Shown here piece after piece: positions 4,303-53,312 of a stretch of DNA of 56,975 bases. The notes under the pieces were generated by a model. The model did not search any database. It saw only the letters and a list, made by a program, of their open reading frames with translations, and was not told the origin of the DNA. This DNA comes from Nitrospirota bacterium. Its GTDB lineage: Bacteria > Nitrospirota > Nitrospiria > JACQBW01. The stretch spans positions 1 through 56,975 of the forward strand of contig JACQBW010000009.1 of assembly GCA_016194305.1 (NCBI GenBank), read 5' to 3'. Positions within the stretch are counted from its first letter, which is position 1, and each line of letters starts with the position of its first letter. Position numbers and translations under genes: made by a program.

Positions 4303-4342
4303 AAGCGCCAAGGTGGTAAGTCCTTCTTGTGATCTATTGCTC

Positions 4343-4412
4343 AGCGAGCGATGCGAGCGAGAGGGGGAAGCTTTAACGGCCTTGCCGGTGAAGGGGGAGA
4401 CGCGAGCCCCTT
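4343..4412 (+). repeat. 70-base dispersed hairpin repeat, copy A
   Basis: This element in the cheR-cheB gap begins AGCGAGCGATGCGAGCGAGA and ends GACGCGAGCCCCTT. It matches copies at 6571, 17216 and (minus strand) 53243. The centre can form a GGC/GCC hairpin and the right end an AGGGG...CCCCT hairpin. Copy A diverges in the centre (TTTAACGGCCTTGCC). It points in the direction of transcription, between two genes of one operon. Confidence 0.75.
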
Positions 4413-6419: not shown

Positions 6420-6570
6420 TCGCATCCGGGACAATTCATTTAATCTCCCCAGTATGTCATGCGAGCAAGAAGGGGAAAATGTTGATACGGGAATTTGCAA
6501 TAAGAGCCGTAAACAGGTGCGGGCCATTGGGCATCCTGGATCGGTACAATCCGCTTTTATAAATGAAAAC

Positions 6571-6640
6571 AGCAAGCAACGCGAGAGAGAGGGGAAGGCT
6601 CCGGCCGGCTCTGCCCGTGGTGGTGGCGACCCGAGCCCCT
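6571..6640 (+). repeat. 70-base dispersed hairpin repeat, copy B
   Basis: This copy lies in the 244-base gap between the GAF gene and cheY. It starts AGCAAGCAACGCGAGAGAGA and ends GACCCGAGCCCCT. The central CCGGCCGGCTCTGCCCG segment is palindromic. The frame through it is open and would read QREREGKAPAGSARGGGD, nearly the peptide encoded by copy C inside the ABC ATPase, but here cheY has its own start downstream. A weak partial resemblance (GCGAGCAAGAAGGGG) lies at about 6462. Confidence 0.75.
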
Positions 6641-6663
6641 CTTATCAGAGAAAGGAAAATACA

Positions 6664-16000: not shown

Positions 16001-17365
16001 ATGATTTCATTAAAAGGCCTCTCTAAAACCTACGCATCAGGGGTTGAAGCGCTCAAGAATTTGAATCTGGAGATCGGGGAGGGAGAGATTTTTGGTTTTC
16101 TCGGATCCAACGGGGCCGGAAAAAGCACGACAATAAAGATTTTGACAACGCTTTCTCGTCCGACCGCTGGCACTTTTGCCATCGCTGGAATCGATCCCCT
16201 TGTGAATCCGACCCGGGTCAGGGAAAACATCGGCTATGTTGCGCAGGAAGCCGGGGTGGATTACTTTCTGTCCGGTCGAGAGAATCTGACACTGCAGGGA
16301 AGGCTTTACCATTTGCCTAGTTCCCTGATTCGGGAGAGAGTCGATGAACTCCTGGAATTGTTTGATCTGAAAGAGGTCGCGGATGCGATGGTTTCCAGCT
16401 ACTCAGGCGGGATGCAGAGAAAGCTTGATGTGGCTACGGCTCTGGTACATCGACCCAAAATATTATTTCTCGATGAGCCGACTCTGGGCCTCGATCCGAG
16501 GAGCCGACTGACCCTCTGGGATTATATCAGGAACCTCAATAAAAATTTTGGAATGACCATTTTTTTGACCACTCATTATCTGGAAGAGGCTGAAAAATTG
16601 GCCGGAAGAATAGGGATACTTGAAGGGGGCGAACTCAAGGTCATTGGCACGCCTGAAAAACTGAAATCAGAAATGGGAGGTGATTCCATAAACTTTGTCT
16701 GTGAGTCGGCAGAAAAAAGGGAGTTGCAAACCGAGAAATGGAATCACTTTAAATTCAAACCCTATATTGACCACCTGGTTTTTGACCGTAACGAAGTGAG
16801 AATGTATGTGCGAAACGGGAAGGATGCCCTGCTCAAAGTCATGGCCGAAGCAGAGGCGATCAAATTGGAAGTGGAGACGATCTCCTTTTCCCGTGCCAGT
16901 CTGGACGATGTGTTTTTGAAGTATACCGGAAAAAGCCTCGAAAACAAAAAGGAAGAAACCGAAGCCGAGCCGTGGTGGAAGAAATGGCAAAAATCGGGTC
17001 AGGGAAATGATGAATGGAAAAAGTGGCAGAAAACAAATGAAGAGGGAAGTTCCGACGAGCAGGACGGGGAGAAATCATCCATCTCCGCAGGAAAGCAGGG
17101 ATCTGACTCTGCCAGTCCGGATGTGGGGTCTGGGGGCATCGAAGGAGCGATAGCTCCGAGCGGGCCCGCAGATGAGGTCGCTCGCGACGCAAGCCCCTCG
17201 AAAAATGGATTTACCAGCGAGCAACGCGAGAGAGAGGGGGAGGCTCCAGCCGGCTCCGCCGGTGGAGGGGGCGACGCAAGCCCCTCGAAATCGTCCTGGC
17301 AATCCGGAAAATGGACCGAAGCAGAAATGAAGGAGTGGTGGGCGAACAAATCCAAAACCAAATGA
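16001..17365 (+). CDS. ABC-2 type exporter ATP-binding protein with unusual Trp-rich, repeat-bearing tail
   Basis: A 454-residue ATPase of the DrrA/NatA type. Walker A (GSNGAGKSTT), signature YSGGMQRKLDVA, Walker B ILFLDEPTLGLDP and switch His (TTHYLEEAEK) lie within residues 1-230, and the usual DrrA-type C-terminal domain runs to about 310. Then comes a hydrophilic tail of some 140 residues absent from normal members. It has WWKKWQKSGQGNDEWKKWQK, Ser/Asp/Gly-rich sequence, repeat copy C read in frame (residues 406-429), a partial copy (about 377-401) and a closing WTEAEMKEWWANKSK. ATG 16001 is preferred to TTG 15992. The stop overlaps the permease start (ATGA). Confidence 0.92.
   Translation: MISLKGLSKTYASGVEALKNLNLEIGEGEIFGFLGSNGAGKSTTIKILTTLSRPTAGTFAIAGIDPLVNPTRVRENIGYVAQEAGVDYFLSGRENLTLQGRLYHLPSSLIRERVDELLELFDLKEVADAMVSSYSGGMQRKLDVATALVHRPKILFLDEPTLGLDPRSRLTLWDYIRNLNKNFGMTIFLTTHYLEEAEKLAGRIGILEGGELKVIGTPEKLKSEMGGDSINFVCESAEKRELQTEKWNHFKFKPYIDHLVFDRNEVRMYVRNGKDALLKVMAEAEAIKLEVETISFSRASLDDVFLKYTGKSLENKKEETEAEPWWKKWQKSGQGNDEWKKWQKTNEEGSSDEQDGEKSSISAGKQGSDSASPDVGSGGIEGAIAPSGPADEVARDASPSKNGFTSEQREREGEAPAGSAGGGGDASPSKSSWQSGKWTEAEMKEWWANKSKTK
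17184..17203 (+). repeat. Partial copy of the 70-base repeat, right end only
   Basis: GCGACGCAAGCCCCTCGAAA occurs here and again, identically, at 17271-17290 as the right end of copy C. The preceding bases (GAGCGATAGCTCCGAGCGGG) are a different GC-rich palindromic run. Both lie inside the ABC ATPase gene and keep its frame. Confidence 0.7.
17216..17286 (+). repeat. 70-base dispersed hairpin repeat, copy C, inside a coding sequence
   Basis: This is the copy whose palindromic centre is best preserved: it begins AGCGAGCAACGCGAGAGAGA, has the centre CCGGCTCCGCCGG and ends GACGCAAGCCCCTC. It lies wholly within the ABC ATPase gene, in the same orientation, and is translated as QREREGEAPAGSAGGGGDAS, a peptide nearly identical to the one that copy B would encode. 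Confidence 0.85.
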
Positions 17366-18132
17366 GTACGCTATTTTACGATACCTGGTACCAGTTTGAG
17401 AAATATATGAGGATCACCCTCAGAATGCCTCTTTGGACCCTCTTTGGATTGATCCAGCCGATTATCTGGTTAATTATTTTTGGAGAGCTTTTCAAAAATA
17501 TGGTTCAGCTCGGTGGATTCCCTTCTTCATCCTATCTTGAGTTTTTAACGCCTGGGATTTTAGTCATGACGGTTCTTTTCGGCTCCTCCTGGTCAGGGGT
17601 TTCTCTCCTGCGTGAAATCAATTTTGGAACCGTCAACAAGGTCCTCGTGACGCCTGTGAAGCGGATTTCAATCGTCTTGAGCCGCGTGATCCATTCTGCG
17701 GTCACGGTTCTCATTCAAATTTTCATCATCTTTGCTCTAGCGGCAGTTTTAGGAGTGAGAATTCACGGGGGATTCTTTGGTTTTTTGTCTGTTTTGGTTC
17801 AAATCCTTCTGTTGGCAATTGGTTTTGCCGCCCTCTCGAATGGGTTCGCCATGAAGCTAAAACGGGAAGAACCTTTGGTGGTCGTTGGAAACATGTTGAC
17901 CCTTCCGCTCATGTTTTTTTCCTCGGCATTTATTCCTCAATATTTTATGCCGGATTGGATAAAGAATTTAAGCGTGATTAATCCGGTCAGTTATGCTGTG
18001 GATGGTATCCGGCTGGCCCTGCAGGGAGACTTCTCGGTCCCTTTTCTATTTAGTTTTTTAATGATATTATGTTTCGCTCTGGGGACGATGGTTTGGGCGA
18101 CCTCGATTTTCCTCCAACAGCAAAACGATTAG
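17362..18132 (+). CDS. ABC-2 type exporter permease
   Basis: A 256-residue membrane protein with about six hydrophobic segments and the ABC-2 family pattern: PLWTLFGLIQPIIWLIIFGE, SYLEFLTPGILVMTVLF, LVTPVKRISIVLSR and the late FSSAFIPQYFMPDWIK followed by NPVSYAVDGIR. It forms the membrane part of the exporter with the preceding ATPase (ATGA overlap). Drug, polyketide or polysaccharide substrates are all known for this family; none can be chosen here. The frame is open 17 codons upstream within the ATPase, so ATG 17362 is used. Confidence 0.93.
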   Translation: MSTLFYDTWYQFEKYMRITLRMPLWTLFGLIQPIIWLIIFGELFKNMVQLGGFPSSSYLEFLTPGILVMTVLFGSSWSGVSLLREINFGTVNKVLVTPVKRISIVLSRVIHSAVTVLIQIFIIFALAAVLGVRIHGGFFGFLSVLVQILLLAIGFAALSNGFAMKLKREEPLVVVGNMLTLPLMFFSSAFIPQYFMPDWIKNLSVINPVSYAVDGIRLALQGDFSVPFLFSFLMILCFALGTMVWATSIFLQQQND

Positions 18133-39485: not shown

Positions 39486-41654
39486 CTATCCCATTGAAAT
39501 AAGATCCAGTTTATCTTTCCACCGCCTTAACAGGAATTCTCTTAATCCCTGATGCTCGGAAAGCTCCAAAAGGGGATCGCGCCGCAATAGACTGATCGCC
39601 TCTTCCCGGGCAACTTCTAGCATCTTGCCGTCACGAAGGAGATTCGCCACTCTCAACTCCGGAATACCCGACTGCCGGGTGCCGAAAAACTCTCCGGGAC
39701 CCCGTATGGACAGGTCTTCTTCAGCCAGCTCAAAACCGTTGGAGGAGTTTACCATCGCTTTTAGTCTTCTTTTTCCATCATCCGAAACGGGATATTGAGC
39801 CATTAAGAAACAATAAGATTGAAAAGATCCTCTTCCGACACGTCCGCGAAGCTGATGAAGTTGCGCCAATCCAAATCGCTCTGCATGTTCGATGACCATT
39901 AATGAAGCATTTGAAATATCGATCCCCACCTCTATGACCGTGGTGGATACTAGAATATGGAGCTCCTTTTCCTTAAATGCGCTCATTGTTTTCTCTTTTT
40001 CTTCTGGTTTCAGTTTTCCATGGAGAAGACCGATGCGAAAAGAGGGGAAAATTTCATTCTGCAACTGTTCTGCCATCGTCACTGCCGCTTTGAGATCGAG
40101 TTTCTCCGATTCATCAATCAGCGGATAGACAATATAGACCTGTCTCCCTCCCCTGATTTCCTTCTCAATAAAAGAATAGCAGGCATGGCGCTGTTTTTCG
40201 TAAAAGAGACGGGTTTGAATCGGCTTTCGACCCGGGGGCAATTCGTCAAGAACCGATAAATCCAGATCCCCATAGACGGTCAGAGCCAGCGTCCTGGGGA
40301 TCGGAGTCGCTGTCATAACCAGCATGTCCGGACTTTTTCCCTTCTTTTTGAGTTCCAGCCGCTGTCTCACTCCAAATTTATGCTGTTCGTCGATCACCGT
40401 GATTCCGAGATTCTTAAAAAGAACCCGATCCTGCACCAGGCTATGTGTTCCAATGATCAACTGACTCTTTCCCCCGGCAATCTCTTCAAGCATTGTCATT
40501 TGCTCTTTTCTGCTGAGTGACTGGGTCAATAACCCGGTTGAGATATTGAGTTTTCGGAGAAGAGGCTGAAAATTAAAATAGTGCTGTTCGGCCAGAATTT
40601 CAGTCGGAACCATTAAACAAGCCTGGTATCCGTTTTCAACTGCGATCAACATGGAGATGAGCGCCACAACTGTTTTTCCCGATCCCACATCCCCCTGAAG
40701 GAGACGGCTCATCGGCAAATCGGATTTCATATCCCGCCTGATCTCCTGGAGAACCCGGTGTTGAGCGGAGGTCAGCTGAAAAGAGAGAGATTGAAGCAGT
40801 TTTTCCTCCAGAACTCCTTCCGTGTTAAAAGAAATTCCCTTGTCCTCATGGCTGTTTCGATTTTTTCTGAGTGTGAGTCCGATTTCCAAATAGAAGAAAT
40901 CTTCAAAAACCATTCTTCGCTGGAAAATAGTTCTTCCTTCAAGCGCCTCCAAATAGAGCTCCCGGGTTGAAGGAAAATGAATCTCTCTCAACGCATCGGA
41001 CAGGGAGGGAAACTGAAATTTTTCAACGAGGAAGGCAGGAAGCCTCTCTTTTTCGTTTTGCAGAAACCCTTCATTGAACAGGGACTTAACGAGCATCCGA
41101 AGGTTTTTGGAGCTCAGTCCCTCTGTCTCGTGATAAACCGGAACGAATTTACCATGATCGACCGGTCGATCTTCCGATTCGTTGATCGTCTCATAACTCA
41201 ATGGGCTCATTTCGAACCGGTTCCCTTCAAACCGGTTGAGGGATACTTTTCCGGTCAGGATCATTCGCTCTCCGGGCTTTAAAATTTTTTCAAGATAAGG
41301 TTGATTAAACCACTTGCAGATTAAAAGACCCGTTTCATCTTCGAGAATCAGTTCAAAAATTCTAAAATGTTTTCGGGAGGTCGTTCGGCTGCCAACCCTC
41401 TTGATCGTACCCGAAACCATCTGCACTTCATCGAGAGTCAGTTGAGAAATCTTTTTGACGGTCGTTCGATCTTCATATCGGTAAGGAAGATAAAAGAGGA
41501 GGTCTTCCACCGTAGTCAACCCTAATTTCTTGAGTAAAGAGGCTTTATACGGACCCACTCCTTTTACGTATTGAAGCGGGGTATCCCAGTTGATCCTGGA
41601 GTTCATCAATTTTCTATTCCACTGGTCCAACAATGAGCGATACCATGTTTGCAT
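39486..41654 (-). CDS. recG: ATP-dependent DNA helicase RecG
   Basis: RecG remodels stalled forks and Holliday junctions. The wedge domain starts at about residue 25 (LQYVKGVGPYKASLLKKLG) with OB strands to about 200. The helicase lobes carry Walker A LLQGDVGSGKTVVAL, DEQH-type Walker B VIDEQHKFGVRQR, motif III TATPIPRTLAL and motif VI QLRGRVGRG. The given start (ATG 41654) adds 16 residues ahead of ATG 41606 (MNSRINWDTPLQYVKG), which fits the family better; the extra part lies within an 83-base-period partial duplication of the gene's own 5' end. 722 or 706 residues, both within family range. Confidence 0.95.
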   Translation of the reverse strand: MQTWYRSLLDQWNRKLMNSRINWDTPLQYVKGVGPYKASLLKKLGLTTVEDLLFYLPYRYEDRTTVKKISQLTLDEVQMVSGTIKRVGSRTTSRKHFRIFELILEDETGLLICKWFNQPYLEKILKPGERMILTGKVSLNRFEGNRFEMSPLSYETINESEDRPVDHGKFVPVYHETEGLSSKNLRMLVKSLFNEGFLQNEKERLPAFLVEKFQFPSLSDALREIHFPSTRELYLEALEGRTIFQRRMVFEDFFYLEIGLTLRKNRNSHEDKGISFNTEGVLEEKLLQSLSFQLTSAQHRVLQEIRRDMKSDLPMSRLLQGDVGSGKTVVALISMLIAVENGYQACLMVPTEILAEQHYFNFQPLLRKLNISTGLLTQSLSRKEQMTMLEEIAGGKSQLIIGTHSLVQDRVLFKNLGITVIDEQHKFGVRQRLELKKKGKSPDMLVMTATPIPRTLALTVYGDLDLSVLDELPPGRKPIQTRLFYEKQRHACYSFIEKEIRGGRQVYIVYPLIDESEKLDLKAAVTMAEQLQNEIFPSFRIGLLHGKLKPEEKEKTMSAFKEKELHILVSTTVIEVGIDISNASLMVIEHAERFGLAQLHQLRGRVGRGSFQSYCFLMAQYPVSDDGKRRLKAMVNSSNGFELAEEDLSIRGPGEFFGTRQSGIPELRVANLLRDGKMLEVAREEAISLLRRDPLLELSEHQGLREFLLRRWKDKLDLISMG

Positions 41655-41706
41655 TGAAGCAGGGTATCCCAGTTGATTCTGGAGTTCAGCTAGCTTTTTC
41701 CATTCC
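41572..41706 (-). repeat. Partial tandem duplication at the recG 5' end
   Basis: The stretch ATTGAAGCGGGGTATCCCAG...GGAGTTCA at 41572-41623 is repeated with few changes at 41655-41706, an offset of 83 bases, which is not divisible by three. One copy lies within recG, the other just ahead of the upstream ATG. The upstream copy is out of frame with the recG reading and so is probably a fossil of duplication. Confidence 0.75.
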
Positions 41707-41740: not shown

Positions 41741-41864
41741 CCCTTCACAGGGAGTGCCCTGATAGAAGACTCGGCGAAATCCGTTTATACCACATTCACT
41801 AATCTTGCTAAAGATGAGTATGAATTTCGGCGCCGTCGGAGAGAATGGCATTCCCTGCGAAGGG
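41741..41864. repeat. Long imperfect inverted repeat between recG and rpmB
   Basis: CCCTTCACAGGGAGTGCC (41741-41758) pairs with GGCATTCCCTGCGAAGGG (41847-41864), 16 of 18 positions. Weaker pairing continues inward (GGCGAAATCC with GAATTTCGGC), giving arms of about 40 bases around a loop near 41790-41820. It lies between divergent genes, about 30 bases before the rpmB promoter candidate. Confidence 0.65.
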
Positions 41865-42172: not shown

Positions 42173-42281
42173 CTGAAAAAACGTAACTACGGCGTTCTCG
42201 CCTTTCGTTCTTCTCGACGTATCAATCAAATACGCCTCCGTCACACTCAAGGCTGCGGCCTGACCTCTGAAATTTTTTGAA
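42173..42281. repeat. Palindromic dispersed element, family 2, copy 2
   Basis: It begins within six bases of the rpmB stop. The core order is GCGTTCTCGCCTTTCG, CGACGTATCAATCAAATACG and AAGGCTGCGGCCT, the same as copy 3. GAAAAAA and TTTTTTGA near the ends can pair. It sits between convergent rpmB and hemE, where it may act as a two-way terminator. Confidence 0.7.
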
Positions 42282-51406: not shown

Positions 51407-51526
51407 GTTTGCTGAAAAAGGTTATCTGCAGTGTTCTCGGCTTTCGGCCTCCTTCAACGTACGAATTATGTACGCCTCAGTCGTCCATAAGTCTGCGGCC
51501 TTGCAGATAATCCTTTTTGAGCAAAC
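51407..51526. repeat. Palindromic dispersed element, family 2, copy 3 (most complete)
   Basis: 120 bases starting four bases after the cyclase stop. Outer arms (GTTTGCTGAAAAAGG with its near-complement at 51502-51526) enclose TGTTCTCGGCTTTCGGCC, CGTACGAATTATGTACG and GTCTGCGGCCTTGCAG. It lies between convergent genes (the cyclase and ftsY), so a bidirectional terminator role is possible. Confidence 0.75.
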
Positions 51527-53098: not shown

Positions 53099-53242
53099 TT
53101 CTCTAATTGTAGCGAGACCCCACTCTTATTGTCTGATATGGCACCTGAAATTCCGTTCTCTCCAACGGCGCCGAAATTCATCCTCATCTTTAGCCACTTC
53201 CGTTTAAGAAGGATAACCGAATTTCGCCGAGTCTCCATTTAC

Positions 53243-53312
53243 AGGGGCTCACGTCGCCCCCTTCACCGGCAAAGCCGGAGAAGCTTCCCCCTCTCGCTTG
53301 CTTTGCTCGCTG
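53243..53312 (-). repeat. 70-base dispersed hairpin repeat, copy D
   Basis: On the minus strand it begins CCAGCGAGCAAAGCAAGCGA, has the hairpin CCGGCTTTGCCGG and ends GACGTGAGCCCCT. It lies between phoH and ybeY and, like copies A-C, points in the direction of transcription of its neighbours. Confidence 0.8.

What the first reader, a model, noticed from the sequence alone, without database searches (positions are those of the whole stretch)
17184..17290. The repeat element is translated inside an ABC exporter ATPase
Copy C (71 bases) and a 20-base identical partial copy sit within the ATPase gene and keep its frame. The peptide QREREGEAPAGSAGGGGD matches the one that copy B would give in the same relative frame. 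The element seems to have entered a hydrophilic tail where insertion is tolerated, as described for Rickettsia palindromic elements. It raises the question of whether mobile palindromes create new protein segments in this lineage.
Basis: partly seen in the sequence, partly recalled or inferred. Interest (0 to 1): 0.62.

Follow-up and report, generated by a model that had tools for sequence, protein, structure and literature searches.

The report
Mobile palindromic repeats translated inside proteins
A short hairpin-forming DNA repeat, scattered between genes in a group of Nitrospirota-related bacteria, has inserted in frame into the floppy tail of a transporter ATPase and, in related genomes, into about a dozen other proteins, so this kind of 'protein-coding selfish DNA', best known from Rickettsia, is widespread in this lineage too.

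Summary
A 72-bp repeat ('E2', copy C, 17215-17286) lies in frame in the C-terminal tail of a DrrA-like ABC ATPase (16001-17365). The '20-base partial copy' (17184-17203) is an E2 3' end joined to a second dispersed repeat ('F2', 17099-17170). The tail is predicted disordered; the conserved C-terminus GKWTEAEMKEWW lies beyond the elements in the same frame. Of two same-family relatives, G001 lacks the full E2 and G002 has it at the same site and frame. Element segments are better conserved at four-fold sites than the gene core (77-82% against 34-35%), so they were probably re-inserted or homogenised rather than simply inherited. E2 (16/17/35 copies in three genomes) has covarying hairpins and occurs across the class. 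In-frame copies also sit inside MidA, RsmD, UvrC, CbiA, an RND transporter (two), a multihaem cytochrome, PurN, PriA and others, several with insertion-free orthologues. It works like Rickettsia palindromic elements, but its architecture is not that of the described REP classes, and no mobilising enzyme was found. Translation is inferred; any benefit is unshown.

The parts
16001..17365 (+). ABC exporter ATPase gene (DrrA-like), 454 aa, host of the elements
   Evidence: translation; TIGR01188 drrA above cut-off over residues 9-310 and ABC_tran
17099..17170 (+). F2-family dispersed repeat, 5' part of the first insert, in frame
   Evidence: 83% identical to the G001 orthologous segment; 7, 9 and 42 F2 places in G000, G001, G002
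17184..17203 (+).
   Evidence: identical 20-mers
17214..17289 (+). full E2 element (copy C), in frame, residues about 405-430
   Evidence: 92% identical to the family consensus over 76 nt
17306..17341 (+). conserved C-terminal motif GKWTEAEMKEWW downstream of the elements, same frame
   Evidence: identical protein in three genera despite silent DNA changes
17362..18132 (+). ABC-2 type permease; ATG overlaps the ATPase stop (ATGA)
   Evidence: sequence and ORF list
6570..6641 (+). E2 copy B, extragenic, upstream of a response-regulator gene (ATG 6664)
4342..4411 (+). E2 copy, not inside any ORF of 120 aa or more
53243..53312 (-). E2 copy, not inside any ORF of 120 aa or more

Best explanation
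E2 and F2 are non-autonomous, hairpin-forming dispersed repeats that spread in this lineage by an unidentified enzyme acting in trans (inferred). Most copies lie between genes. E2 is usually 72 bp, a multiple of three. With its A+T-rich 3' tail the consensus stays open in four of six frames, so a landing inside a gene often leaves the downstream frame intact; copies survive where the added 24-30 residues fall in a disordered tail, linker or surface loop (inferred selection filter). In the window, one F2/E2 composite and one full E2 sit in the disordered C-terminal tail of an ABC exporter ATPase and are read through to the conserved C-terminal motif and the overlapping permease start. The inserted peptide is most likely tolerated rather than useful. 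The copies in this gene have probably been renewed by re-insertion or gene conversion, and can be lost by deletion between flanking 20-bp repeats.
For: Dispersed copies: 16, 17 and 35 E2 and 7, 9 and 42 F2 places in three genomes. Covarying hairpins. Full E2 absent from the G001 orthologue. Insertion-free orthologues for in-frame copies in MidA, RsmD, RND site 2 and a cytochrome. Element length divisible by 3 in 41 of 47 full-length copies. Disordered tail, pLDDT below 50 at residues 315-438. Conserved C-terminus beyond the inserts in the same frame. Four-fold sites more conserved in the elements than in the core.
Against: No protein data. No mobilising enzyme and no general target-site duplication found. 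The shared site in G000 and G002 means the insert is not private to the window species. Strong silent-site conservation could instead mean selection on the element DNA.
Confidence: 0.82

Rival explanations
1. The peptide is an ancestral low-complexity tail, and its likeness to the intergenic repeats is coincidence or composition.
For: All class relatives have a long hydrophilic tail on this ATPase, and G002 has a similar peptide.
Against: The DNA matches intergenic copies at 88-92% over 72-76 nt; the outgroup tails lack the sequence; the same repeat occurs in unrelated proteins in two frames.
Confidence: 0.03
2. The inserted peptide has been exapted: it does something for the exporter and is kept by selection.
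For: Full E2 is at the same site in G000 and G002; silent sites are conserved above the core.
Against: 5 of 26 residues differ between G000 and G002, G001 lost it, the region is predicted disordered, and elsewhere the repeat is read in other frames giving unrelated peptides.
Confidence: 0.1
3. The tail is not translated in full: the gene is decayed or the frame is an assembly error, and the elements are effectively extragenic.
For: These are draft genomes, and there are no protein data.
Against: The frame is intact through three inserts in G001, two element families in G000 and E2 in G002, all ending in the same conserved C-terminus. Separate assemblies agree on elements in this tail.
Confidence: 0.05

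Closest known systems
Rickettsia palindromic elements (RPEs; Ogata et al. 2000 and 2002, as described in PMC10969869)
   Same: Palindromic dispersed repeats, many inserted in frame in unrelated protein-coding genes that appear functional
   Different: RPEs are described as about 150 bp with a conserved encoded peptide; E2 is 72-80 bp, read in several frames and in both orientations, in apparently free-living groundwater bacteria of another phylum; sequence relation to RPE families not tested
GTAG- and CGTC-tagged REPs, including intragenic REPs (PMC3733652)
   Same: Hairpin repeats, mostly intergenic, some in frame within genes including uvrA and uvrB; CGTC REPs also lack a known transposase
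   Different: Those are 20-40 bp single hairpins with an unpaired terminal GTAG or CGTC tag; E2 is about 72 bp with two adjacent hairpins and no such terminal tag; the paper does not mention Nitrospira
MITEs (review PMC10969869)
   Same: Small non-autonomous repeats that can fuse in frame with genes
   Different: No general target-site duplication detected for E2, and terminal inverted repeats are not evident by inspection

Membership tests
RPE-type protein-coding palindromes | Dispersed multi-copy repeat forming hairpins | tested here: met
   68 E2 places in three genomes; covariation
RPE-type protein-coding palindromes | In-frame insertion in unrelated conserved genes, with insertion-free orthologues | tested here: met
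   MidA, RsmD, RND site 2, cytochrome
RPE-type protein-coding palindromes | One conserved encoded peptide | tested here: not met
   Two forward frames and at least one reverse frame used
RPE-type protein-coding palindromes | Sequence homology to a named RPE family | not tested
   RPE sequences were not on hand; PMC186582 is not held
GTAG/CGTC REP | 20-40 bp hairpin with unpaired terminal GTAG or CGTC tag | tested here: not met
   By inspection of the consensus: 72 bp, two hairpins; CGTC occurs only inside a hairpin loop on the reverse strand
GTAG/CGTC REP | RAYT (Y1 transposase) flanked by the repeat (GTAG class) | tested here: not met
   None of 45 Y1 loci carries E2 or F2; none detected in G000
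MITE | Target-site duplication | tested here: not met
   No excess of abutting repeats in 47 copies
Known structured RNA | Rfam match | tested here: not met
   No match at gathering thresholds in the whole window

The most novel reading that the evidence does not exclude
In this class of bacteria, hairpin repeats that stay open in most frames are an ongoing, class-wide source of new protein segments. They land recurrently in replication and repair proteins (UvrC in two genera, PriA, uracil-DNA glycosylase, GyrB) and are kept at fixed sites by repeated conversion, with some inserts now doing a job.
Probability: 0.12. Interest if true: 0.85.

Novelty: new variant of a known kind. Interest (0 to 1): 0.6.

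Why it matters
In-frame palindromic inserts are best known from Rickettsia; the 2024 MITE review (PMC10969869) says only that a similar mechanism in other prokaryotes is conceivable, although PMC3733652 had already listed intragenic REPs in several phyla. Here two repeat families in little-studied, apparently free-living groundwater bacteria do it in many conserved genes, with empty sites in relatives. That makes rates of gain, loss and tolerance measurable by comparative genomics, and it warns annotators that such inserts are probably real protein sequence.

Tried and rejected
RAYT mobilisation: no link found. Target-site duplication: none in general; two copies (G000:C15, G000:C16) have 20-22 nt direct repeats in their flanks, unexplained. 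Six-frame openness as a special design: a first-order Markov control gives all six frames open in 37% of cases, so base composition explains much of it, and individual copies have 2-6 open frames. Single-strand folding energy of individual copies: mostly unremarkable; covariation was the informative test. A single mobile unit made of partial plus full E2: the left pieces have different upstream sequences, so mosaic arrays fit better. Apt (three tandem E2 at the N-terminus, L186), GyrB (N-terminal F2) and the alanine racemase C-terminus were not counted as proof, because terminal copies may be extragenic.

Full report
OBSERVATION. The window's ABC exporter ATPase gene is 16001-17365 (+), 454 aa, a DrrA-type ATPase. 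A 72-bp repeat at 17215-17286 is 88% identical to a copy at 6570-6641, and 17184-17203 is identical to 17271-17290. Both are in frame. Copy B is upstream of a response-regulator gene, outside the likely coding region. I call the 72-bp repeat E2.

THE ELEMENT. The window's genome (G000, 2.27 Mb, 37 contigs) holds 16 E2 places. Two genomes of the same family hold 17 (G001) and 35 (G002). The consensus is CCAGCGAGCAAAGCGAGCGAGAGGGGGAGGCTCCATCCGGCTTTGCCGGTGGAGGGGGCGACGCGAGCCCCT, followed in many copies by ATAATAG. Two adjacent hairpins are supported by covariation: 98.1% of cells paired, 35 two-sided changes against 8.6 in shuffles and at most 4 when slid. E2 occurs in 26 of 58 class relatives, abundantly in families f1, f4, f5 and f7, and hardly at all in f2 or f8; strong matches are rare elsewhere in the phylum. 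Rfam has no match in the window.

A SECOND FAMILY. The piece 17099-17203 is not E2 alone. Its 5' part belongs to another dispersed repeat, F2, found at 7, 9 and 42 places in the three genomes. In G001 a further F2-type copy sits in frame inside the folded part of the same ATPase, and another related repeat lies in the gap before the permease.

PRESENCE AND ABSENCE. ATPase tails: G000 has F2 + E2 end + full E2. G001 has F2 + E2 end and no full E2. G002 has an E2 end + full E2 and no F2. All three end in GKWTEAEMKEWW in the same frame, with synonymous DNA changes. A tree from 1,770 aligned residues gives (G000,(G001,G002)) at 92% support. The simplest history is therefore an ancestral F2+E2 tail with one loss in each of G001 and G002. 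Deletion between the two 20-bp repeats would remove 87 bp (29 codons) and yield the G001 arrangement. But four-fold degenerate sites are 77% identical in E2 (G000/G002) and 82% in F2 (G000/G001), against 34-35% in the gene core (Fisher p = 0.006 and 0.0003). Plain vertical descent does not predict this; repeated insertion, conversion from other copies, or DNA-level constraint would. These were not separated.

TOLERANCE. AlphaFold2 gives high confidence for residues 1-314 and pLDDT below 50 for nearly all of 315-438, which includes both elements (residues about 367-430). Related ATPases in the class have long Trp/Lys-rich hydrophilic tails without the element.

NOT UNIQUE TO THIS GENE. In-frame copies with conserved sequence on both sides were found in G002: UvrC, an ExtM-like multihaem cytochrome, an RND transporter (two sites), RsmD and CbiA; and in G001: MidA, and UvrC at the same site as G002. 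Insertion-free orthologues: MidA in G000 and G002; RsmD in G000 and G001; the second RND site in G000 and G004; the cytochrome in G004. In family f5 genomes: PurN, PriA (reversed element), a diacylglycerol-kinase-like protein, a uracil-DNA glycosylase and others. PDB alignments show the PurN insert in the gap between two conserved blocks, and the PriA insert between two blocks of the cysteine-rich zinc-binding region. This list was assembled by hand from fetched loci and is not a census.

HOW IT WORKS. Shown: a dispersed covarying hairpin repeat, usually 72 bp, sits in frame in many genes and is absent from some orthologues. With its tail, one forward and one reverse frame contain stops, and the genic copies I read use the other frames. 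Inferred: mobilisation in trans, survival only where tolerated, translation. The enzyme is unknown: no Y1 transposase was detected in G000, Y1 number does not track E2, and none of 45 Y1 loci carries E2 or F2.

COMPARISON. RPEs are described as about 150-bp palindromes fused in frame to many Rickettsia genes (PMC10969869). Intragenic REPs, including in uvrA and uvrB, are reported in several phyla (PMC3733652). The behaviour here is the same. The element is not a GTAG/CGTC REP by structure and does not encode one conserved peptide. I therefore call it a new variant of a known kind; its relation to named RPE families was not tested.

LIMITS. Draft genomes; ORFs called by simple rules and supported by HMMs or orthologues; G001 is 82% complete; no expression or protein data; few four-fold sites; the frame and orientation tally is post hoc.

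Noticed in passing
window 41767-41852 and 53149-53234; also 41570-41620 / 41653-41706 and 42173-42261 / 51412-51501: Other dispersed repeats in the window (72-85% identical pairs); one lies next to the E2 copy at 53243. They may be further repeat families.
   Followed up: no
L110 just after the ATPase stop (G002); L029 4338-4490 (G001): In both relatives the ATPase-permease junction, which overlaps by ATGA in the window, is occupied by other palindromic repeats: a TTGTCATTGCGAGCG-type element in G002 and an F2-related mosaic in G001.
   Followed up: partly
L120-L127 ATPase tails; L281 (G004 RND transporter); window 16970-17040: The ATPase tail throughout the class carries repeated PWKKW(Q/G)-type Trp/Lys motifs, and a similar motif appears in a loop of an unrelated RND transporter. 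Function unknown.
   Followed up: no
L186 905-1693 (-), G001:C97: Three tandem E2 copies, about 91 bp apart, precede and run in frame into adenine phosphoribosyltransferase. The true start codon is uncertain.
   Followed up: partly
L265 (G001 UvrC), L233, L237, L016: E2 variants keep both ends but have a different central hairpin (CCGCTCCCAAAGCAAGCTC...GGAGG type), so these elements look modular.
   Followed up: partly
G000:C15:30500 (L010) and G000:C16:4749 (L011): These two E2 copies are flanked by 20-22 nt near-identical direct repeats, well above the null distribution, unlike other copies.
   Followed up: no
G000 whole genome: No UvrC orthologue matched the query in the window's genome at E <= 1e-8; gene absence or an assembly gap.
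   Followed up: no
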